NCBI RefSeq assembly: GCF_003054195.1
Contig: NZ_QBKP01000007.1
Location: forward strand, 124,001 to 188,000
DNA from: Gemmobacter caeni
GTDB lineage: Bacteria > Pseudomonadota > Alphaproteobacteria > Rhodobacterales > Rhodobacteraceae
Length of the DNA: 64,000 nucleotides
Reading direction: 5' to 3'
The notes under the pieces were generated by a model. That model searched no databases and had not been told where the DNA came from. It saw nothing but the letters and a program-made list of their open reading frames with translations. The position numbers were made by a program, and so were the translations under genes. Of the stretch, positions 49,211 to 63,655 are shown one piece after another. The first letter of the stretch is position 1, and every line of letters begins with the position of its first letter.

Positions 49211-50533
49211 ATGACCTGCACTCTCGACAGCACTGAAGTTGCCAGCGCCACGGCGATGGACCAGTTCGATGCCGGATGCGTCTCGCTGATGGATCGCTGG
49301 CAGCCGATGACGGAATGGTATGACGAGCGGCTGAAATCTGGGCTTGATGCCACATGCAAGGCCAATGCCTGCCGCATCGGCCCGCGCGTGGTGGCGCGTG
49401 ATCGGGCAGGGCGCGGGCTGGCGGGAATCAATATGGCCTCGCAGGATTTCCTGAGCCTCGCCTCGCATCCCAAGATCCTTGCGGCGGCTTCGGCGGCGGC
49501 ACGGCGCTACGGGGTCCATTCGGCGGGCACTGCGGTCCAGATGGGGCTGACCACGCTGACCACCTCGCTGGAAGAGCGGATTGCCGCTTTCGTCGGCATG
49601 GCACAGGCCATCGTGTTTCCAAGCGGCTGGACCGCCGGTTTCGGCGCCATTCGCGCGCTGGTGCGGCCGGGCGATCATGTGCTGGTGGACGCCCATGCCC
49701 GGGAATGTCTTCAGGACGGCGCCGCCGCTTCCGGTGCAACCGTGCATCAGATCCAGCACGGCTCGACCGAGGCGCTGGTCCGCCGGCTGGAACGACTGCG
49801 GGATGAAGACCCGCAGGCCGGCATCATCGTTGTGACCGAGGCGCTGTTCGCCATGGAACCGGGCAGCGCCAGCCTGCCCGAATTGCAGCAGCTTTGCCGT
49901 CGCTATGCGGCGACGCTACTGGTGGATGTGGCCAATGACCTGGGTGCGCTTGGCGCCACAGGGCGTGGTGTCTGCGAGATGCAGGGCATCCTTGGCGGTA
50001 TCGACATCCTCACCGGCAGCTTCTCCAAGACTTTCGCGGCGAATGGCGGGTTTGTCGCCTCCAACCATCCGGCCCTGCGGCTTGCCATGCGGGTGGGCAG
50101 TTCGGTGCAGGGATGCAGCAATGCGATATCGCCCCTTCAGGCAGCGGTGGTGCTGGCCGCGCTGGAAATCGTGGACAGCGAGGAAGGCGCCGAACGGCGC
50201 AACCGGCTGATGCAGAACATCGAAAGGCTGCGCACCGGGCTGGAGGACGCAGGGTTTGAGGTCACCGGTGCGCCGGGCGCGGTCGTGACCGTCAGGCTCG
50301 GGCGGCTGGCCTGCGCGCGGCGGCTGACGGCCGACATGCTGTCGCGGGGCGCGCTGCTCAACCTGACCGAGCCGCTGACGCCGGGAAGCGCCGATGCGCT
50401 GTGGCGGCTGAAGCTTCTCGCCGATCACGGAACCAGCGAGGTCGATGGCTTCGTGGCGATTGCCCGCGAGGCGAAAGCCCGGCTTGACGAAGAAAATGCG
50501 CGCAGTGCCGCGCTTCAGTATGCGGTGGCCTGA
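49211..50533 (+). CDS. Atypical alpha-oxoamine synthase (AONS/KBL/ALAS family)
   Basis: A 440-residue PLP enzyme of the family that condenses an amino acid with an acyl-CoA. The PLP lysine is kept (Lys273 in T-G-S-F-S-K-T-F), as is the G-A-L-G-A-T-G-R-G segment. Aligned by eye, the PLP-stacking histidine of the D-x-x-N-H-A-S motif is Arg164 (D-A-H-A-R-E-C). The histidine of the D-E-A-H motif is Asn242 (D-V-A-N-D). Product and substrate are unknown. An 8-bp inverted repeat (49119-49126 and 49144-49151) lies in the 112-bp gap upstream. The next gene is a SARP-type regulator, so specialised metabolism is plausible. Confidence 0.8.
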   Translation: MTCTLDSTEVASATAMDQFDAGCVSLMDRWQPMTEWYDERLKSGLDATCKANACRIGPRVVARDRAGRGLAGINMASQDFLSLASHPKILAAASAAARRYGVHSAGTAVQMGLTTLTTSLEERIAAFVGMAQAIVFPSGWTAGFGAIRALVRPGDHVLVDAHARECLQDGAAASGATVHQIQHGSTEALVRRLERLRDEDPQAGIIVVTEALFAMEPGSASLPELQQLCRRYAATLLVDVANDLGALGATGRGVCEMQGILGGIDILTGSFSKTFAANGGFVASNHPALRLAMRVGSSVQGCSNAISPLQAAVVLAALEIVDSEEGAERRNRLMQNIERLRTGLEDAGFEVTGAPGAVVTVRLGRLACARRLTADMLSRGALLNLTEPLTPGSADALWRLKLLADHGTSEVDGFVAIAREAKARLDEENARSAALQYAVA

Positions 50534-50559
50534 CGATCCCCTCAGGGCCACTGTATCGG

Positions 50560-50623
50560 TGCGGATCGGTCAATGACGGCAGGTGGCGGGGCAACCCGGA
50601 ATGTCGTCTTTGGCCGATCCGCA
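50560..50623. promoter_or_regulatory. Widely spaced inverted repeat upstream of the SARP gene
   Basis: TGCGGATCGG (50560-50569) and its exact complement CCGATCCGCA (50614-50623) face each other across 44 bp, just before the SARP start at 50700. It may be a pair of regulator half-sites. Confidence 0.45.
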
Positions 50624-50699
50624 TCTGCCACGGGTTTACGCCCGCACCGCACACGGCTATCCCTAGAATCAGACTTCGATTTCTGGGGATGTATCGAAG

Positions 50700-52634
50700 A
50701 TGGCCGGGTGCACCTACTTCCGCATCCTTGACAGATTTTGCTTGTCGGTCGACGGGCAGGAACTGCCCGTAAAGGGGCAGAAGCAGAAGGCTATTCTCGC
50801 ATGGTTCAGCCTGACCGGCGAAAGCGGTATCGCGCGCGACCGGCTGGCTGATCTTTTGTGGTCCGATTCCGGCGCGGAAAAGGCTCGTGGTTCTCTGCGC
50901 AATACCCTGCATGTGCTGGCACGCGACTGTGCGGGGATTTCGCTGTTCGAGGCTGACCGTCTGGCGGTGCGGGCACGGTTCGCGGGCGCGCCGTGTGACA
51001 TATCGCAGGCTTTGGCGGCTTTCGACGCGGGGGATACAGCACCGCTTGCGGCGCGGTCGCTTGCCGATGCCGACATCCGCTTCGCCGCCGATCTGTGGGG
51101 GCTGGACCCGGAGTTCGATGGCTTCCTGACCGAACGCAAGGCAGCCTATCTGGCGCATCTTTCAGCGCAGCTGCGCTCCCGTCTGCACGCGGCTGGCGAA
51201 AAAACCGGCGCGCGTCTGCTGGCCGAGCGCCTGCGCGAGCTGGAACCTCAGGATGAAGAGGCAACGCGGGCGCTGATGCGTCTGGATATCGCGGCGGGTA
51301 ATAACGCTGCTGCGATGGAACATTATCGCAAGCTCTGGACGCTTCTGGACGAGGAATTCGATCTGGAACCCGCCGAGGAAACCCAGGCGCTTGCGATTTC
51401 GCTCAAGCTTTCCGGTTCGGCTGCGCCCTTGCCGGCGCAGCTTGACGACAAACGGATCACGATTTTCGTCCAGTCCTTCGCCTTGTCCGCGCTGCCTGAT
51501 GACGAACAGATTCTGGTGGCGGCGGTGCAGGCCGAACTGGGATCGGCGCTTTATGCGGTCGAAGACTGGGTGACCATCGAAACCAGCCCCGGAATGCAAC
51601 TGCCCGCCCGCCCCGGCAATTACGAACTGCGTGGTTCGCTGTCGCCGGGGCTGGAGGAAATGCGGCTGATCCTGTCGCTGAAGGATCTGTCCACTGGCGC
51701 GATTATCTGGTCATGGCCGCTGCATATCCGGCGCGGCGACTGGGTGCGCAACTCGGGTTTCGCGGTGCAGCGTATCGCCATGCGCCTGACCGGCAAGCTG
51801 GAGTCGCATTACATCAGCGGGCTGGAAGGCCTGTCCGATGCCCAGCTTGCCGATTATCGCAAGCTGATGCGCGCGGGCTGGCTGATGCGCGACTGGTCTT
51901 CGGATGCGGACCGGCGGGCGGAGGCGCTGCTGCGCTCGGTTTCCTCCGGCGGCGATCTGGGGCTGCGCGCGCGTATCGGGCTGGCCGAATTGCTCAACAG
52001 CCGCGAACTGATCTTTCCGGGCTCGGGTCCGGTTCATGCCGGTGTACCCGAAGCGCTGGAAATCGGGCGGGCCTGCACCGCCGAGGCGCCCGACCGTGGC
52101 GATGCCTGGCTTGCCTTCGGCTGGAGCTCGATCCTGCTGGATCACGTCGACGCCGCGGCCGAGGCCGCGAATGTGGTGGCCGACCTGTCGCAAAGCAATC
52201 CGCGCCGCCTGTCGGCGGCGTCGGAAATGATGGCGCTGACCGGGCAGGTGACTCGCGCGACCCGCCTGGCCGAGGCGGCTTCGGCGCTTGATGCCGGGGT
52301 GTGCCGGGTGTCGATGGGCTATCGGACGCCGGTCGCGCTGTTGTTGGGCGATTATGCCACAGCGATGGATCTGGCCGACCGGGCCGCCGGGGCCATTCCC
52401 TTTACCTATGCCTATGGCTGCGCCGCCGCCGTGATGGCGGGGGATATGGCGCGGGCGGCCGGGTTCTGGCACCGTTTCAGCACCGATATTTCCGGCCGCT
52501 GGCAGGGCGCAGGTGCGCCAGATCCGCTGTCGTGGTTTCTGGCGGCGACGTCGATGCGGTCAGCCTACGGACTTGACCGCATCGCCGAGGCCCTGTGGCA
52601 GATCGCCGGTCAGCGGCAGGATCGCGTGGTATAA
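50700..52634 (+). CDS. SARP/BTAD-type transcriptional activator
   Basis: A 644-residue protein. An OmpR-like winged helix comes at about 1-95 (G-Q-K-Q-K-A-I-L-A-W-F-S-L then R-L-A-D-L-L-W). A bacterial transcriptional activation domain follows at about 100-240 (A-E-R-L-R-E-L-E-P-Q-D-E-E-A-T-R-A-L-M-R, H-Y-R-K-L-W-T-L-L-D-E-E-F). A central region is reminiscent of TolB/adenylate-cyclase-associated domains, and the C-terminal part is TPR-like and helical. No transmembrane segment is seen. Such SARP proteins activate nearby biosynthetic or export genes; the flanking oxoamine synthase and the convergent YcaO operon are candidate targets. Its 3' end overlaps the convergent gene by 25 bases. Confidence 0.8.
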   Translation: MAGCTYFRILDRFCLSVDGQELPVKGQKQKAILAWFSLTGESGIARDRLADLLWSDSGAEKARGSLRNTLHVLARDCAGISLFEADRLAVRARFAGAPCDISQALAAFDAGDTAPLAARSLADADIRFAADLWGLDPEFDGFLTERKAAYLAHLSAQLRSRLHAAGEKTGARLLAERLRELEPQDEEATRALMRLDIAAGNNAAAMEHYRKLWTLLDEEFDLEPAEETQALAISLKLSGSAAPLPAQLDDKRITIFVQSFALSALPDDEQILVAAVQAELGSALYAVEDWVTIETSPGMQLPARPGNYELRGSLSPGLEEMRLILSLKDLSTGAIIWSWPLHIRRGDWVRNSGFAVQRIAMRLTGKLESHYISGLEGLSDAQLADYRKLMRAGWLMRDWSSDADRRAEALLRSVSSGGDLGLRARIGLAELLNSRELIFPGSGPVHAGVPEALEIGRACTAEAPDRGDAWLAFGWSSILLDHVDAAAEAANVVADLSQSNPRRLSAASEMMALTGQVTRATRLAEAASALDAGVCRVSMGYRTPVALLLGDYATAMDLADRAAGAIPFTYAYGCAAAVMAGDMARAAGFWHRFSTDISGRWQGAGAPDPLSWFLAATSMRSAYGLDRIAEALWQIAGQRQDRVV

Positions 52635-53173
52635 TCGCCCACATTGCCCCAGACGAACTGCATCGCGGTTGTCTTGCCCGCAAAGTAATCGTCCAGATAG
52701 GTCAGGTTCTGGAACCTGCTGCCCTCAGCCTGGTGCTGGAGCGCCAGATCCTCCTTGGCGGCGATGTTGTTCTTTTCGGGCAGGCGGATATTCACATGGT
52801 CGGCGGTGTTCTGGAACAGGCTCATCGTCGCGGCTTTGTGGACATGCTGGACCTCAAGCACCCCGTCGACAACCCAATGCCCCAGCGGATCATCGGAGGT
52901 GTCCCCGTCCAGCGGTTTGAAATAGGCGGCGAACAGCGGCGACTTGACCGTTTCGGTCACGATGTCGGGCGAACGGGCGAGGCTGCCCTCTCCCTCGGCG
53001 AGCTGCGCGGCGAATTTGCGGGCATAATTCGCCAGCAGATTGCAGAATGCCTCGACCGTTGTCGGGTAGTTCGCCGCGGGCTGCCGCGTCATGGCAATCA
53101 TGAAGGCGCCGACGGTTTCAAAGTCGATGGTATTGTATTTCACATCCGGCTGGGCCGGGCTTCCGGTGGTCAT
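52610..53173 (-). CDS. Unknown 187-residue protein linked to a haem peroxidase and YcaO gene
   Basis: I do not recognise a family. The protein is hydrophilic, without signal peptide or membrane helix. It has only two cysteines, one in E-A-F-C-N-L-L and one at the very C-terminus, which reads T-T-R-S-C-R. It is the last gene of a leftward three-gene operon (YcaO-like, peroxidase, this gene). The ATG at 53173 lies 2 bases after the peroxidase stop with GCGGAG upstream. The Thr/Ser/Cys-rich tail next to a YcaO gene makes it a speculative modification substrate. Confidence 0.6.
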   Translation of the reverse strand: MTTGSPAQPDVKYNTIDFETVGAFMIAMTRQPAANYPTTVEAFCNLLANYARKFAAQLAEGEGSLARSPDIVTETVKSPLFAAYFKPLDGDTSDDPLGHWVVDGVLEVQHVHKAATMSLFQNTADHVNIRLPEKNNIAAKEDLALQHQAEGSRFQNLTYLDDYFAGKTTAMQFVWGNVGDYTTRSCR

Positions 53174-53175
53174 TG

Positions 53176-54699
53176 TCACACTCCGCTGTTGAGGGTCAGA
53201 AATCGTATCAGGCTGGGCATGTCGGGGATATCCGGCATGTCAGGGTCGACGGGGGCGTCTGGCAGGGCGGCTTCGGCAGTTTCAACCGCCGCGCGGATCG
53301 CCCCCCACAGAAGTGCCGACCCCAGCGCGCCCAGTCGCAGACCGTCGCCAAAGCCCTGCGTGGCGGGCCCGCGACCGGCCTCAAGCAGCGTGTAAAGATA
53401 TAGCGGCGGATCGGCAGCCAGATGCGGTGGCGCCAGATGCCCGCAGGCGTTGCACCAGTCGCTGATCAGCTTTGCCCGTGCGGGGCCATCCCATAGCAGC
53501 CAGTCGGGAAAGCGGCTCCGCAGGGCAGGGGCCAACCGGGTGGCGAGGCTTGACACGGATTGCAGGCCGCCATCGGTGCTGCGGGCCAGATCGCGCAACG
53601 CCAGATCGTTGTCGCTGGTGACAAGCGAGGAGTGAATCTCCATCGCATCCGGCAGGCCGAAATCACTGCCGAACATGGCCGCCAGCCCGCCTTCCATCCG
53701 CATGGCCTTTTGCGGTGGTGAGAGCAGATCGAGATCAAAGAAATTGCGCCAGTCGATGCGCCAGAAATTCTCTGCCCCCGGCCGGGCGCGCAGGGCGGCG
53801 ATATCGGGATCGCCACGCAGCAACAGGCGCACGGGAACGGTGTTGACGTTCAGCCTGTACTGGCTGCGCACCAGCCAGTGTCCTGCGCGCAGGATGGCCG
53901 CCATCACTTCAACCGGGATATCGGCGGCGCCGGGCGGTCCCAGGTCGGCAGGCGTATCGGCCAGCGCGGGCAGGGCGAGGCGCGGCAGCAGATCGCGCAG
54001 CAACAGCCCGTGCCACATCCGAACCGTGGCGGTCTTGGCCCCGCGCAGGCTGTCGGCAGGCGAATGACCGCGTGCGGCAAGCCGGGTGGTCACCGCCCCG
54101 GCATGGGCGATGAACAGCGCCGAAAGCTGTGCGATCATCGGGTTGTCGTCATTGCGCGTATCAGGCAGCGCGCCCAGCGTCCGGCCAAGGCCGCTTGCAG
54201 GTTTCCGGCGCGTGATGTCGGCGGCGAAATACGGATAGAACAGCGGTGCCGGGGGAAACCTGTGCAATTCGGGCAGGGACAGATCGGCGGAAACCGGGCC
54301 GAACAGGCTTTCCAGATGCAGCGGCTGGGTCCGCTCGGCCTGTGTCACCGTTGTGCGGGTAAGCTCTGGCGCGGGGTCGGACAGCGCATAATCGAATTCA
54401 CCTTCCGTCGGCGTGCACAGGTCATGGGCCAGCAGTTGCCCGAGGTAGGTATACCCCGCAGGCATCTCGCCTTCGGCACCGGCCTGCGCGGGTTTGACCA
54501 GCCGCGCCGCCAGATCCGGCAGGTCGCGCACCGACCCCAGCAGCGATTGCCCACCGCAATAGAGCGATGCGGACTCTGCCATCTTCGGACAGCCGAAACT
54601 GCGCCGCCCCGCGGGCAGGGCAGGCGGCGGCAGTTGTGCCGCCGCTTTCAGCATACGCCATGCCATGTAAGGGCTGGTCCCTCCGGGTGGATTCGGCAT
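53176..54699 (-). CDS. Animal-type (peroxidase-cyclooxygenase) haem peroxidase
   Basis: A 507-residue protein with the family landmarks in order: distal G-Q-L-L-A-H-D, L-H-L-E-S-L-F-G, the catalytic-arginine region D-T-R-N-D-D-N-P, H-A-G-A-V in place of the usual H-N, and R-A-G-H-W-L-V with the likely proximal histidine. No signal peptide is evident, which is unusual for a secreted defence enzyme and suggests cytoplasmic action. It could oxidise a peptide or small molecule made by its neighbours. GTG at 54717 is an alternative start, but ATG 54699 has GGGAG well placed. Confidence 0.75.
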   Translation of the reverse strand: MPNPPGGTSPYMAWRMLKAAAQLPPPALPAGRRSFGCPKMAESASLYCGGQSLLGSVRDLPDLAARLVKPAQAGAEGEMPAGYTYLGQLLAHDLCTPTEGEFDYALSDPAPELTRTTVTQAERTQPLHLESLFGPVSADLSLPELHRFPPAPLFYPYFAADITRRKPASGLGRTLGALPDTRNDDNPMIAQLSALFIAHAGAVTTRLAARGHSPADSLRGAKTATVRMWHGLLLRDLLPRLALPALADTPADLGPPGAADIPVEVMAAILRAGHWLVRSQYRLNVNTVPVRLLLRGDPDIAALRARPGAENFWRIDWRNFFDLDLLSPPQKAMRMEGGLAAMFGSDFGLPDAMEIHSSLVTSDNDLALRDLARSTDGGLQSVSSLATRLAPALRSRFPDWLLWDGPARAKLISDWCNACGHLAPPHLAADPPLYLYTLLEAGRGPATQGFGDGLRLGALGSALLWGAIRAAVETAEAALPDAPVDPDMPDIPDMPSLIRFLTLNSGV

Positions 54700-54750
54700 C
54701 GGTTTCTCCCTTGTCACGGGGAATATGTCGCGCGATGCGTCAGCGTAACG

Positions 54751-55626
54751 TCAGTCAGCGGGGGCAAGCAACGGGCGGGAGCGGGGCCAGGCCGGACAGA
54801 CAAAGCGCCAGACAGGTACCCGGAGTTGTGGTGATGTCAGGTCAGAAAATCCATAAGTTGTAACGAGATCGCCAAGAAGCTTTTCCAGCGATCCGCCTGC
54901 CGGTTCCGGTGCGGCAGCCTGCGCTGTATGCAACGCGGGCAGACGCGGAGCCAGTGCGGTCTGCACATGGTCGCGGAAGGGTGTATCGGGGTGATGCGCC
55001 GGGGCGAGCCAGGCCAGTTCGGCCTGCAACATCTCGCGCGTGGCGGCCTCGGCGGCGCGGGCCGGATCGGGAGAGGCGGCGCTGCCAAGCGCGATCTGCC
55101 CGCCCGTGCCGTCGTCGCCCAGCATCAGCCGTACAGACAGACCCGGAAGAAAGGGCAAGGCCAGACACAGTACCCGCCGTCCCGTATGGCCCGCGCGGTA
55201 GGCGGCGAGTTCGGGCGGCTCGGCGCAGGCGTGGCCGGGCAGTTTGCCCTGCCACCACAGCGCCAGCGCCGCGCGTTCGGCCGCTTCGCAGAAAGCCGCC
55301 AGCCGGGCCGCCGCGTCGCTGTCCTGCGCCGCCGCCCCTTCGCTGCCCAGCCCCTCTGGCCCCGGCAGGGCGCGGGCATCTTCCAGCACGATCCTGCCCG
55401 TGGCATCCCGCGCGGGTACGGGTTCAGGATGCGCCTCCGGTCCCAATGACAGGCCCTCTGCCACCTCCCCCAGCGCGCGCAGGCGGGCGCTCCCGGCGGA
55501 AGGTCCGGTTCCGGTGCCGGGCTGGCCGCTGGCATGTCGTGCAAAGACCACGCAAAGCGCGGGCGCCCAGGGCGCACGCAACTGGTGCAGATCTGTCGTT
55601 TCGGCAAGCGGTGCGAGCGGGTTCAT
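54751..55626 (-). CDS. Short YcaO-domain-like protein
   Basis: A 291-residue protein with YcaO-type landmarks: R-A-L-G-E-V-A-E-G near 50, an E-A-A-E-R-A helix near 113, the G-S-A-A-S-P-D-P-A-R-A-A-E-A-A then E-M-L-Q-A-E-L segment, and a C-terminal D-L-T-S-P-Q-L-R-V-P-V-W-R-F-V-C-P. YcaO enzymes use ATP to activate peptide backbones and form azolines, thioamides or amidines. This copy is shorter than the usual 380-450 residues, and no leader-binding or dehydrogenase partner is adjacent. It is the first gene of the leftward operon. The match is by motif and pattern. Confidence 0.65.
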   Translation of the reverse strand: MNPLAPLAETTDLHQLRAPWAPALCVVFARHASGQPGTGTGPSAGSARLRALGEVAEGLSLGPEAHPEPVPARDATGRIVLEDARALPGPEGLGSEGAAAQDSDAAARLAAFCEAAERAALALWWQGKLPGHACAEPPELAAYRAGHTGRRVLCLALPFLPGLSVRLMLGDDGTGGQIALGSAASPDPARAAEAATREMLQAELAWLAPAHHPDTPFRDHVQTALAPRLPALHTAQAAAPEPAGGSLEKLLGDLVTTYGFSDLTSPQLRVPVWRFVCPAWPRSRPLLAPAD

Positions 55627-61083: not shown

Positions 61084-62208
61084 TCAGGAGTGCAGCAGGT
61101 GGCGCAGCGCCGTGACCAACGTTTGCACCCCGTCATCGGTGGTGACGGGACCGGGCGAGGTGCGCAGAATCTGCCCGCGCCCGTCGGTGGCAATACCTGC
61201 CGAACGCAGCGCCGCTACGATCTCTGGGGCCGGGTGGCTGTCGGGCAGCCGCAACATGACCGAGCCGCCGCGTGCGGTTTCCGCGCGCGGGGTGATCAGG
61301 TCCAGCCCCATCTCATCCGCGGCGGCGATGATCCGCGCGGTCTGCCGCCGGTTCTGTGCCAGCAGTGCCGCGCGATCCTGCGCGGCATGCCAGTCCAGCG
61401 CGGGCAGCGAGGCGATGGCCGCCATGCAGCCCGGCGTGCCGTTGTCAAAGCGGCGGATGTCGGGGGCATAGGCGAAGCGGTCCAGCGCCCAGTTGAACGG
61501 GTCGGGCTGGCTGAACCAGCCGCGCAGCTCGGGCAGACACTGGCTGATCAGATCCGGCGCCACATGCAGGATGCCCGCGCCGGGCGTGCCACACATCCAT
61601 TTCAGGCTGGTCGAGATGGTGAAATCCACCGCCGGATCGGCGACGTCGAAGGGCAGCAGCCCCGCGCCCTGTGTAATGTCCACCCCGATCAGGCTGCCCA
61701 TCGTCCGGCCATGCGCCACCATCGCGGGCAGGTCGATCCGGTGCGAGGTGGTGGAGGCGACCCATGTCAGCAGCGCTACAGCCACATCCGGCCCCCAATG
61801 CGCAAGGAAATCCTCGGGCTCCACCCAGGCGGCACCCTGCCGCATCGGCACGGTTTCCAGTGTGAACCCCAGCCGGTCCTGCAATTTCGTCAGAAGGAAG
61901 TGGTTCGACGGAAAGCAATCTGCCGCCACCAGCACCCGCTTACCGGACAGCCGCTCGGGCGGCAGCGCGGTCATCAGCATGTGCAGGCCCTGCGTGACAT
62001 TTTCGCAGGTGGTCAGGCTGCCTTCCGGGGCGCCGATGATGCCGCGCCAGTGTTCGATGAAGCCCGCGCGTTTGCCCAGCAGGTAGCCCCATTGCGCGTC
62101 ATCCGGCGCTGCCCAGACGGCTGCAAATTCGGCCATGGCGTGGGCCAGATCCTCGGCCTTGCCGGGATACTGGCCGATGGAGTGATAAAGGAAATAGCTG
62201 TCTTGCAT
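61084..62208 (-). CDS. Kynureninase-like class V PLP enzyme
   Basis: A 374-residue fold-type I enzyme of the kynureninase / class V aminotransferase group. It has C-E-N-V-T-Q-G near 88, D-I-T-Q-G-A-G-L-L-P-F-D, and the PLP lysine in T-S-L-K-W-M-C-G-T-P-G. Kynureninase cleaves kynurenine to anthranilate and alanine. No other tryptophan-degradation gene is present, and the neighbours are an amino-acid ABC permease and a DUF1445 protein, so the true substrate may be a different imported amino acid. Confidence 0.75.
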   Translation of the reverse strand: MQDSYFLYHSIGQYPGKAEDLAHAMAEFAAVWAAPDDAQWGYLLGKRAGFIEHWRGIIGAPEGSLTTCENVTQGLHMLMTALPPERLSGKRVLVAADCFPSNHFLLTKLQDRLGFTLETVPMRQGAAWVEPEDFLAHWGPDVAVALLTWVASTTSHRIDLPAMVAHGRTMGSLIGVDITQGAGLLPFDVADPAVDFTISTSLKWMCGTPGAGILHVAPDLISQCLPELRGWFSQPDPFNWALDRFAYAPDIRRFDNGTPGCMAAIASLPALDWHAAQDRAALLAQNRRQTARIIAAADEMGLDLITPRAETARGGSVMLRLPDSHPAPEIVAALRSAGIATDGRGQILRTSPGPVTTDDGVQTLVTALRHLLHS

Positions 62209-62213
62209 AGGTC

Positions 62214-62888
62214 TTACCGTTGATAGGCGCGCTGGAAGCGTTGCTCCAGCCAGCCGGTCAGCCGCACCAGCGGCCAGAGGATCGCCACATAGATCAGCGC
62301 GGCGCCGATCAGGGGCGTGGGATTGGCGAACAGGGCCTGCGCATCGGTGGCCTGTTTCAGCAGGTCGGTCATTGCCACCACCGACGCAAGCGAGGTGTCC
62401 TTGATGATGCTCACGCAGTTCGAGGCATGCGGCGGGATCACGATGCGCATGGCCTGCGGCAGCACGACCTTGCGCATGGCCAGCCAGAAATGGATGCCAA
62501 GCGCGGCTGCGGCCTCGAACTGACCCTTCGGGACCGCCTGAATGCCCGCCCGCATCACCTCTGCCGTATAGGCGCCCAGCACCAGCGACAGCGCGATGGC
62601 GGCGGCGGCGAAGGAGGACAGCACGACCCCCGCGAAGGGCAGGGCGTAATAGATCAGGATGAGCACCACCAGAACCGGCATGGCGCGCATGAGATCGGTA
62701 TACAGCACCGCGAACAGCCGCAGCGGTTTCGGCGCATAAAGCCGCATCAGCGCGATGCCGACCCCCAGCGCCGTGCCCATCACGATGGCGGTGACACCAA
62801 GCGCCAGCGTCATTCCCAGTCCGCGCAACAGGATCGGGAAAGCGCGTCGCATCACATCGGCGTTGAAGAAGATGTCTACGGCGTCCAT
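62214..62888 (-). CDS. Polar amino-acid ABC transporter permease
   Basis: A 224-residue HisM/GlnP-type permease with about five helices and the loop A-A-L-G-I-H-F-W-L-A-M-R-K-V-V-L-P-Q-A-M-R. It would import an amino acid with a partner permease, binding protein and ATPase that must lie outside the window. It overlaps the upstream hydro-lyase-like gene by 13 bases and precedes the kynureninase-like gene by 5 bases. Confidence 0.9.
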   Translation of the reverse strand: MDAVDIFFNADVMRRAFPILLRGLGMTLALGVTAIVMGTALGVGIALMRLYAPKPLRLFAVLYTDLMRAMPVLVVLILIYYALPFAGVVLSSFAAAAIALSLVLGAYTAEVMRAGIQAVPKGQFEAAAALGIHFWLAMRKVVLPQAMRIVIPPHASNCVSIIKDTSLASVVAMTDLLKQATDAQALFANPTPLIGAALIYVAILWPLVRLTGWLEQRFQRAYQR

Positions 62889-63655
62889 GCGCTCGCTCCA
62901 TGCGGCTGGGCGGGAAGGTCGGTGATCAGCATGTGCCCCGGTGCATGGGTGATGGCGAAGGGCAGCCGGGCGGAGGCGATGGCGCGTTCCATCGTCACGC
63001 CGCAGGCCCAGAACACCGCGACTTCGCCGGGCCGAACGTCGGTCAGCCCCAGCCCGTCGATCGGGCGTGACAGGTCGACCCCGATCACCGCCGGATCGCC
63101 GGTATGGACGGGCGCGCCATGCGCCTGGGGATGGTTGCGTGTGACCTCGGTCGCCAGCGCGACCTGATCCGCCGCGACCGCCCGCATCGTCACCACCAGA
63201 TTGCCGCCGAACAACCCAGCCGCCCGGTTGGGCAGCGCAGTATCAAAGGCGGAACAGCTTCGCCCCGGAGCATGGCAGCGCAGGGGAACGCCTGCCGCCA
63301 CCAGATCGGCTTCGAAACTCAGCGAACAGCCGATGGCGAAGGGCACCAGATCGTCGCGCCAATGCGCGGCGATGTCGGGCAGGGTGCCGGTTGGCTGCCC
63401 GTCGCGGAACGTCCGGTAAAGCGGCAGGTCGTGGCGCAGGTCGATGTCGCCCAGATCCGGCAGCGCCGGATCGCCCGCACTTCCACGCGCCAGCAAGGGG
63501 CAGGCGGCAGGATTGGCGTGCAGAAACGCCTCGAAATCATCGGCGAAGGCGGCGGGGATCAGCGCCAGATTGGCCTGTGTCCAGCCCGGACACAGCGCCG
63601 CCGTCTGCCGCACCTCGCCCGCGCGAAATCGTTGCCGCCAGTCCGCCGGGGTCAT
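62876..63655 (-). CDS. DUF1445 / D-glutamate cyclase-like hydro-lyase family protein
   Basis: A 259-residue protein with the family pattern P-G-W-T-Q-A-N-L-A-L-I-P, F-A-I-G-C-S-L-S-F-E, and H-T-G-D-P-A-V-I-G-V-D-L then F-W-A-C-G-V-T. Members are annotated as putative hydro-lyases or D-glutamate cyclases. Co-transcription with an amino-acid permease and a PLP enzyme suggests amino-acid catabolism. Its ATG overlaps the preceding gene's stop as ATGA. Confidence 0.8.
   Translation of the reverse strand: MTPADWRQRFRAGEVRQTAALCPGWTQANLALIPAAFADDFEAFLHANPAACPLLARGSAGDPALPDLGDIDLRHDLPLYRTFRDGQPTGTLPDIAAHWRDDLVPFAIGCSLSFEADLVAAGVPLRCHAPGRSCSAFDTALPNRAAGLFGGNLVVTMRAVAADQVALATEVTRNHPQAHGAPVHTGDPAVIGVDLSRPIDGLGLTDVRPGEVAVFWACGVTMERAIASARLPFAITHAPGHMLITDLPAQPHGASAWTP

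What the first reader, a model, noticed from the sequence alone, without database searches (positions are those of the whole stretch)
49211..55626. Unfamiliar SARP / YcaO / animal-type haem peroxidase / oxoamine synthase neighbourhood
A SARP-type activator, typical of antibiotic clusters, sits between an atypical alpha-oxoamine synthase and a convergent three-gene operon encoding a short YcaO-like protein, a cytoplasmic-looking haem peroxidase and an unrecognised 187-residue protein. YcaO enzymes modify peptides and haem peroxidases oxidise or crosslink, so together they could build a modified peptide or small molecule. I know of no described pathway with this set. That the genes form one system is inference from adjacency.
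Basis: partly seen in the sequence, partly recalled or inferred. Interest (0 to 1): 0.8.

Follow-up and report, generated by a model that had tools for sequence, protein, structure and literature searches.

The report
YcaO-peroxidase cassette with conserved protein tail
A small set of bacterial genes that travel together appears to chemically modify the tail end of a small protein, using a peptide-modifying enzyme paired with a haem peroxidase, a combination we did not find described in the papers we could search.

Summary
The window (a Gemmobacter-type genome) carries AOS-SARP facing an operon YcaO-peroxidase-187aa. All five genes keep this arrangement in 5 other genomes of the genus; a seventh lacks only the peroxidase. 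Outside the genus YcaO, haem peroxidase, BTAD/SARP regulator and small protein recur across Alphaproteobacteria, including plasmids of Phaeobacter inhibens and Paracoccus, without the AOS. The 'unrecognised' protein is the key: in 22 of 22 loci it ends [GA]x[YF]xxxxCx(1-2) (here NVGDYTTRSCR), a tail matched by only 3 of 4,962 other ORFs (pattern made from these tails). A profile of it found 6 new loci, all with peroxidase and regulator alongside. Best reading: a RiPP-like system in which YcaO activates the backbone at the invariant C-terminal Cys of a folded small protein and the peroxidase oxidises the product. The chemistry is inferred, not shown. Five YcaO ATP/Mg residues are kept in 19 of 19. 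The AOS is a Gemmobacter add-on whose PLP lysine is lost in 3 of 7. New variant of a known kind (YcaO-modified RiPPs).

The parts
52610..53173 (-). Small protein, 187 aa, proposed substrate; folded body plus C-terminal tail
   Evidence: Position and tail shared by 22 loci; AF2 pLDDT 83.6 with 16 sequences; no family or PDB fold match
52610..52657 (-). Codons of the tail FVWGNVGDYTTRSCR and stop; proposed modified region with the invariant penultimate Cys
   Evidence: 14 of the last 15 residues identical in 7 Gemmobacter sequences, 8 of those 14 codons with synonymous changes; Cys in 22 of 22 loci, Tyr in 21
53176..54717 (-). Divergent animal-type haem peroxidase, proposed oxidising enzyme
   Evidence: Profile A2 finds relatives (E 8.8e-41 to L048) that hit PF03098; His/Arg motifs
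54751..55626 (-). Short YcaO enzyme (291 aa), proposed ATP-dependent modifier of the tail
   Evidence: PF02624 E 2.9e-15; E54, E57, E114, E117, R118 match E. coli E75, E78, E199, E202, R203 and are kept in 19 of 19
50700..52634 (+). BTAD/SARP-type regulator, convergent to the operon, 3' end overlapping the small gene by 25 nt
   Evidence: PF03704; same family in all 16 loci
49211..50533 (+). Alpha-oxoamine-synthase-like protein, Gemmobacter-specific addition

Best explanation
The cassette is a RiPP-like post-translational modification system. The small protein is its substrate: the folded body serves as a structured leader and the C-terminal tail (G/A-x-Tyr-x4-Cys-x, here VGDYTTRSCR) is the target. 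The YcaO enzyme, which keeps its ATP/Mg-binding glutamates, activates a backbone amide beside the invariant Cys near the C-terminus, most likely so that the Cys thiol closes a thiazoline. The haem peroxidase then oxidises the product, most simply thiazoline to thiazole, in place of the flavin dehydrogenase of ordinary azole clusters; this step is dispensable. The BTAD/SARP protein regulates the cassette. In Gemmobacter an oxoamine-synthase-like gene has been added upstream of the regulator. Shown by sequence: the recurring gene set, the conserved tail, the intact YcaO residues, the peroxidase kinship, the AOS lysine loss. Inferred: that the small protein is the substrate (the claim to which the confidence applies), that Cys is the site, the ring chemistry (about 0.4), the peroxidase step (about 0.3) and the regulator's target. 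No protease or exporter gene recurs, so the modified tail may stay on the protein.
For: Gene set: YcaO, peroxidase, small gene, SARP and AOS lie in the window's order in 5 of 5 other Gemmobacter loci, while NtrC/HK/MFS match in only 1 of 5 and GlpK and the binding protein in 0 of 5; a seventh genome has all but the peroxidase. Of 24 class-wide YcaO neighbourhoods from 23 of the 26 non-self genomes matched, 3 have SARP, peroxidase and a small protein with the tail. Prediction test: small-protein profile A9 gave 6 new loci (1 new in 18 genomes, 0 new in 23, 0 new in 1, 5 new in 398); 6 of 6 have a peroxidase directly upstream and a convergent SARP, 4 of 6 an intact YcaO. Plasmids of Paroceanicella, Paracoccus, Phaeobacter and Rhodobacteraceae QY30. 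Tail: Cys 22 of 22, Tyr 21 of 22, 3 hits among 4,962 other ORFs; kept where SARP and small gene do not overlap (L048, L050, L082). YcaO residues 19 of 19. Pairwise distances of the four proteins correlate over 13 loci, r 0.91-0.96. Folded leader plus C-terminal core modified by a YcaO is established for MprE7/MprC (PMC12455567: abstract and section 4 part 1 read).
Against: No product was seen. The small protein's body is itself conserved within Gemmobacter, as in a protein with a function of its own. E1-like/RRE partner and dehydrogenase genes were not among recurring families, and the aligned YcaOs show no C-terminal PxPxP; both features are recalled as usual for azoline formation. SagD is the best NCBIfam model but below cut-off (window 45 bits, five relatives 99-124, cut-off 219). 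E. coli YcaO positions K9, S16, E191 and R286 (recalled as ligands) are not conserved in these proteins. The peroxidase is absent in L016, has Gln for the putative proximal His in L014, and the DxRN[DE] motif was not found in L086 nor in 5 of 6 plasmid forms, the distal-His pattern not in 1 of 6. YcaO has an internal deletion in L084. No BTAD gene is listed beside the cassette in L098. The gene arrangement differs in L094. The tail pattern was made after seeing the tails; small proteins of L094 and L095 were picked by position and tail, not by profile. Within the 6 Gemmobacter loci alone the distance correlations are weaker (0.74-0.93; 7 to 78 of 2000 permutations reach them), and shared ancestry contributes throughout.
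Confidence: 0.6

Rival explanations
1. The small protein is a partner, not a substrate: its body or tail docks on the YcaO (like a recognition element or an allosteric part), and YcaO plus peroxidase act on another, unlinked protein or peptide.
For: Body conserved within Gemmobacter; no other partner protein recurs; E. coli YcaO has a substrate that is not gene-linked (PMC13063428, passages).
Against: The most constant part across distant loci is a C-terminal tail with Cys and Tyr; a docking partner need not keep a Cys. A second YcaO-peroxidase architecture also has a small protein ending in Cys.
Confidence: 0.2
2. The peroxidase makes a Tyr-Cys crosslink in the tail, and YcaO does something else.
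For: Tyr and Cys keep a fixed spacing in 21 of 22 tails.
Against: L094 has Phe at the Tyr place and keeps a peroxidase; L016 keeps Tyr and Cys without the peroxidase; tails of the second architecture have no Tyr there yet have a peroxidase.
Confidence: 0.1
3. YcaO installs a thioamide or other backbone change at the tail, or elsewhere in the small protein, rather than an azoline.
For: YcaO proteins of McrA and E. coli uL16 thioamidate proteins (PMC13063428, passages); PxPxP not seen.
Against: The SagD model scores higher than the McrA thioamidation model in all five relatives scanned; the invariant Cys suggests a cyclisation.
Confidence: 0.25
4. The AOS is the heart of a small-molecule pathway and the SARP controls it; the operon opposite is unrelated.
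For: AOS and SARP are same-strand neighbours in all 7 Gemmobacter loci.
Against: SARP goes with peroxidase and small protein without an AOS in the 9 other loci; PLP lysine lost in 3 of 7 AOS copies.
Confidence: 0.04
5. Chance adjacency of unrelated genes.
For: None found here.
Against: Recurrence in distant genomes and 6 of 6 newly predicted loci.
Confidence: 0.01

Closest known systems
YcaO-modified RiPPs with long folded leaders (nitrile hydratase-like leader peptides; MprE/MprC/MprD, PMC12455567)
   Same: ATP-dependent YcaO, a folded N-terminal body, a C-terminal Cys-bearing stretch as proposed core, an oxidase acting after YcaO
   Different: Our small proteins match no leader or other family model; the oxidase is a haem peroxidase, not the FMN oxidase MprD; MprC has an RRE domain, whereas no RRE-bearing partner gene recurs here (no RRE model was run)
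Linear azol(in)e / TOMM clusters (SagD family)
   Same: Best NCBIfam model of the YcaO is TIGR03604
   Different: All below the model's cut-off; no dehydrogenase, E1-like or exporter family recurs
YcaO thioamidation of proteins (McrA; E. coli uL16, PMC13063428, passages only)
   Same: A YcaO changes the backbone of a protein rather than a short peptide
   Different: Thioamidation model scores lower than SagD in five of five relatives; the putative substrate is gene-linked and carries a near-terminal Cys
Peroxidase-cyclooxygenase superfamily (animal haem peroxidase, PF03098)
   Same: Relatives hit PF03098 (4 of 4, 2 of 3)
   Different: The window protein itself is below detection
SARP/AfsR regulators
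   Same: BTAD domain; Phaeobacter and Paracoccus homologues are annotated as BTAD regulators
   Different: No N-terminal DNA-binding domain model matched; long C-terminal part

Membership tests
YcaO enzymes (PF02624) | Pfam gathering score | tested here: met
   56.9 vs 25.7 bits
YcaO enzymes (PF02624) | ATP/Mg-binding residues (E. coli E75, E78, E199, E202, R203; list recalled) | tested here: met
   Kept in 19 of 19 cassette YcaOs, window included; positions K9, S16, E191, R286 (recalled) are not conserved
Azol(in)e RiPP / TOMM | SagD-family score above curated cut-off | tested here: not met
   45 bits (window), 99-124 (five relatives), cut-off 219
Azol(in)e RiPP / TOMM | E1-like/RRE partner and FMN dehydrogenase in the cluster | tested here: inconclusive
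   No such family recurs in 16 loci by blastp; no PF00881 hit among 10 ORFs beside the peroxidase-less L016, 7 of which had no hit at all; no dedicated RRE or E1 model was run
Azol(in)e RiPP / TOMM | Azole or azoline in the product | not testable with these tools
   Needs mass spectrometry
RiPP (general) | Gene-encoded precursor with conserved core beside the modifying enzyme | tested here: inconclusive
   Small protein with conserved tail in 22 of 22 loci; modification not shown
RiPP (general) | Protease and exporter for release | tested here: inconclusive
   No such family recurs; a pro-kumamolisin/subtilase-type protease lies in L048; neighbours were not annotated one by one
NHLP-type precursor | Match to leader-peptide models | tested here: not met
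   16 members, no match above a curated cut-off in NCBIfam or Pfam
Animal haem peroxidase (PF03098) | Pfam gathering score | tested here: inconclusive
   Window protein no hit; relatives 4 of 4 and 2 of 3 hit
Animal haem peroxidase (PF03098) | Distal His, Arg and proximal His motifs (assignment recalled) | tested here: met
   Window has all three; over 13 loci distal 13, Arg 12, proximal His 12; over 6 plasmid forms 5, 1 and 6
SARP regulators | BTAD domain | tested here: met
   33.9 vs 22.1 bits
SARP regulators | N-terminal OmpR-type DNA-binding domain | tested here: not met
   No such Pfam hit at E<=1; may be too divergent for the model
Alpha-oxoamine synthases | PLP-binding lysine (identity of the residue recalled) | tested here: met
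   Lys in window GSFSK aligned to GTFSK of serine palmitoyltransferase; lost in 3 of 7 homologues

The most novel reading that the evidence does not exclude
A previously undescribed alphaproteobacterial family of modified proteins: a folded small protein whose C-terminal Tyr-x4-Cys tail is turned by a stand-alone YcaO and an animal-type haem peroxidase into a heterocyclic, perhaps redox-active or metal-binding, protein-borne group that is never cut off. The near-constant tail, unlike the variable cores of many antibiotics, would mean one conserved cofactor-like product, and the second architecture with a Cys-rich tail (L056, L091, L092) would be a sister branch using the same enzyme pair.
Probability: 0.3. 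Interest if true: 0.87.

Novelty: new variant of a known kind. Interest (0 to 1): 0.74.

Why it matters
YcaO enzymes make antibiotics, toxins and rare protein modifications, and new partner enzymes have opened new chemistry. A haem peroxidase working with a YcaO would be a pairing for which we found no description. The gene-linked putative substrate, its fixed tail and its presence on plasmids of cultured bacteria (Phaeobacter inhibens, Paracoccus) make the idea directly testable, and the tail motif helps to find members that annotation calls hypothetical.

Tried and rejected
AOS as a core enzyme: rejected (no hit outside Gemmobacter; lysine lost in 3 of 7). Tyr-Cys crosslink as the universal peroxidase job: lowered (L094, L016, second architecture). 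Tail conservation as a mere by-product of the overlap with the SARP gene: rejected as sole cause, because the tail is kept in loci without overlap and conservation extends beyond the roughly seven overlapped codons.

Led nowhere: PDB sequence searches with YcaO and two peroxidases (no hits); Foldseek of the small protein with a poor model and a better one, no match at E<=0.001; NCBIfam and Pfam scans of 16 small proteins at E<=5, only chance-level matches; plasmid search with the window small protein (none) and window peroxidase (one weak Nonomuraea hit, not followed). A single-sequence search (1 of 295 genomes, the own one) and the genus-level profile A1 (2 of 390) did not show the Paracoccus and Phaeobacter forms found later by other routes, so these low counts probably understate the spread. 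The small protein, SARP and AOS were not searched for separately in the 4 Gemmobacter genomes without YcaO and peroxidase. Loci L096-L098 were not run with the AOS or SARP profiles; for them I rely on the record's gene table. G645, G730 and G863 were not fetched.

Literature: ten searches of open-access PMC full text. 0 papers hold YcaO with 'heme peroxidase' or 'haem peroxidase'; 0 for Gemmobacter+YcaO (41); 0 for at least three of YcaO, heme peroxidase, RiPP, oxoamine synthase (40). Searches (1 paper, not opened; PMC8776678), and the capped lists of 72 (15 of 115 shown), 75 (15 of 27) and 103 (8 of 68) showed no title on this set; the unlisted papers were not seen. PMC4603692: term search only, 0 occurrences of peroxidase, SARP, BTAD, haem, heme, Alphaproteobacteria. 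PMC8776678: passages, about a DyP-type peroxidase in a linocin cluster. PMC13063428: passages. PMC12455567: abstract and section 4 part 1 of 2. Subscription papers are not in that library, so a description elsewhere is possible.


Full report
What is in the window. The minus-strand genes YcaO-peroxidase-small protein are tightly spaced (33 nt and 2 nt; sequence), and the small gene ends inside the last codons of the convergent SARP gene (25 nt shared). The genome belongs to the genus of Gemmobacter lutimaris and G. caeruleus: the two named contigs found with the peroxidase have the lengths of the contigs in genomes G300 and G297 of the window's genus. One search returned only these two loci, and records close to the window genome may be left out there.

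The genes form a unit. Of 11 genomes of the genus (own included), 6 have the peroxidase and 7 the YcaO. In the 5 other genomes with the peroxidase all five genes keep order and orientation, at about 40 to 91% identity, while NtrC, histidine kinase and MFS from one flank match only in L010 (G. lutimaris) and glycerol kinase and a binding protein from the other flank match in none. The seventh genome, G303 (L016), has AOS, SARP, small gene and YcaO but no peroxidase match; 189 bp separate YcaO and small gene there.

The system is not confined to Gemmobacter. A YcaO profile matched 27 of 337 class genomes, own included. I fetched 24 neighbourhoods from 23 of the 26 others (G645, G730 and G863 not fetched; several are cut by contig ends). 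In 3 (L048, L050, L051) the YcaO sits beside SARP (E 1.4e-66 or lower) and peroxidase (E 6.1e-21 or lower) matches; a fourth (L056) has YcaO and peroxidase; two (L063, L066) have weaker SARP matches (E 3e-15 and 1e-12) and no peroxidase; the other 18 have neither. L048 and L050 carry a 130- and a 157-residue protein ending RVGDYTVANCA and RVGDYTIAQCG, L051 one ending RFADYTLSHCGP, each beside the peroxidase and facing the SARP, the place of the window's 187-residue protein.

Test by prediction. A profile of ten small proteins (A9: seven Gemmobacter, L048, L050, L051) was searched in 18, 23 and 1 genomes of three orders and in 398 genomes of the phylum. It gave six loci not seen before. Six of six have a peroxidase directly upstream and a convergent SARP. 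Four have an open YcaO frame beyond the SARP; in L084 the YcaO has lost about 210 internal residues; in L081 the contig ends beside the SARP. By another route, a SARP from L082 found three plasmid records at E<=1e-30, all three with YcaO and peroxidase profile matches nearby, one of them (L094) in a different gene arrangement. A small protein from one of these (L095) found five further records, of which I opened three: Phaeobacter inhibens P78 pP78_a, Paracoccus aminovorans JCM7685 plasmid IV and Paracoccus sp. SMMA_5_TC. All three have the order YcaO-peroxidase-small; the peroxidases of the last two are annotated hypothetical but match the profile. A BTAD regulator is listed beside the cassette in two, not in the third (that gene table is incomplete by design). 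In Phaeobacter the small gene overlaps the BTAD gene, as in the window.

The tail. In 16 aligned small proteins the invariant columns are M1, P37, P132, D180, Y181, T182 and C186. The plasmid forms relax D and T (VGIYATNMCR, VGIYITNMCD, LGDYVLQHCD) and once Y (IATFAFTRCR). The common pattern [GA]x[YF]xxxxCx(1-2) at the C-terminus holds in 22 of 22, with Tyr in 21. Among 4,983 frames of 80 residues or more from 44 of these sources it matched 24: 21 small proteins and 3 others. The pattern was made from these tails, so this measures its specificity and is not an independent test; the small proteins of L094 and L095 were identified by position and tail, not by the profile. In Gemmobacter 14 of the last 15 residues are identical in seven sequences, and 8 of those 14 codons carry synonymous changes. 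About seven tail codons overlap the SARP gene in the window, but the tail persists in loci without overlap (L048, L050, L082).

The enzymes. The window YcaO is short, but the residues matching E. coli YcaO E75, E78, E199, E202 and R203 are present in 19 of 19 cassette YcaOs aligned (L048, truncated by its contig, L081, L084 and the second YcaO of L095 are not among them). Other positions recalled as E. coli ligands are not conserved. The best curated model is the SagD cyclodehydratase, below cut-off: 45 bits here, 99-124 in five longer relatives, cut-off 219; the McrA thioamidation model scores lower in those five. The peroxidase is divergent: relatives hit PF03098 in 4 of 4 and 2 of 3, the window protein does not. 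Over 13 loci a distal-His pattern is found in 13, DxRN[DE] in 12, and His at the putative proximal place in 12 (Gln in L014); over six plasmid forms the patterns are found in 5, 1 and 6. The small protein is predicted folded (pLDDT 83.6, pTM 0.79 with 16 sequences; residues 181-187 mean 55) with no PDB match at E<=0.001. In 16 loci the gene families shared between Gemmobacter and other lineages are SARP (16), peroxidase (15) and YcaO (14), plus a regulator-like frame shared by window, L010 and L085; the small proteins form two blastp groups joined only by profile; AOS is in the seven Gemmobacter loci (antisense shadow frames ignored). No dedicated RRE, E1, protease or exporter model was run. 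Distances of the four proteins correlate over 13 loci (r 0.91-0.96), less so within the 6 Gemmobacter loci (0.74-0.93), and include shared ancestry.

How it most likely works. A folded small protein with a Cys-bearing tail, beside an ATP-competent YcaO, is most simply a substrate with a structured leader, as described for the nitrile hydratase-like leader of MprE7 and the YcaO MprC, where the FMN oxidase MprD follows (PMC12455567, abstract and first part of section 4). Here a haem peroxidase stands in the neighbouring place. That it acts on the Cys-derived group rather than on the Tyr is favoured by L094 (Phe for Tyr, peroxidase kept), by L016 (Tyr and Cys kept, peroxidase gone), and by a second architecture: in L056, L091 and L092 a YcaO and an animal-type peroxidase accompany another small protein ending HLIRSCASC, HLIRCCAAC or HLIRCCSEC, with a different regulator. 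Three of 7 genomes of that order had this small gene, and 3 of 3 kept YcaO, peroxidase and regulator. All chemistry is inference.

Accessory AOS. It resembles serine palmitoyltransferase but the lysine aligned with the PLP lysine is Arg in two and Ser in one of seven copies, and it was not found outside the genus. It is best seen as a lineage-specific addition, perhaps no longer catalytic in some species.

Limits. Genomes were sampled, not exhausted; the small protein diverges fast, so absence counts are probably lower bounds. The literature check covers open-access PMC only, partly through capped lists. None of these required a change of odds.

Noticed in passing
L056:6665-12075; L091:719-6224; L092:5121-10575: Second YcaO plus animal-type peroxidase architecture: a divergent small protein ending HLIR(S/C)C(A/S)xC and a cyclase/TPR-type regulator; 3 of 3 loci keep all four genes.
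   Followed up: partly
L050:6513-8165: Vanadium chloroperoxidase-like gene (PF17897, PF01569) beside the cassette, another oxidase.
   Followed up: no
L048:3410-5002: Pro-kumamolisin/subtilase-type protease gene near the cassette, a possible releasing protease in that locus.
   Followed up: no
L086:13711-15555: A second, weaker peroxidase match on the far side of the YcaO gene.
   Followed up: no
L095:5206-6768: The Paracoccus denitrificans plasmid locus has a second, longer YcaO gene (520 aa, PF02624 242 bits) upstream of the SARP-type gene.
   Followed up: no
L084:12305-13006: YcaO gene with a large internal deletion while small gene, peroxidase and SARP remain open.
   Followed up: partly
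L063, L066: YcaO genes (399 aa frames) beside weakly SARP-like genes without a peroxidase match, in two genomes of one genus.
   Followed up: no
window 61084-62901 (-): An ORF whose C-terminal part reads by eye like a kynureninase (recalled), next to an MFS transporter-like gene; no family search was run on it.
   Followed up: no
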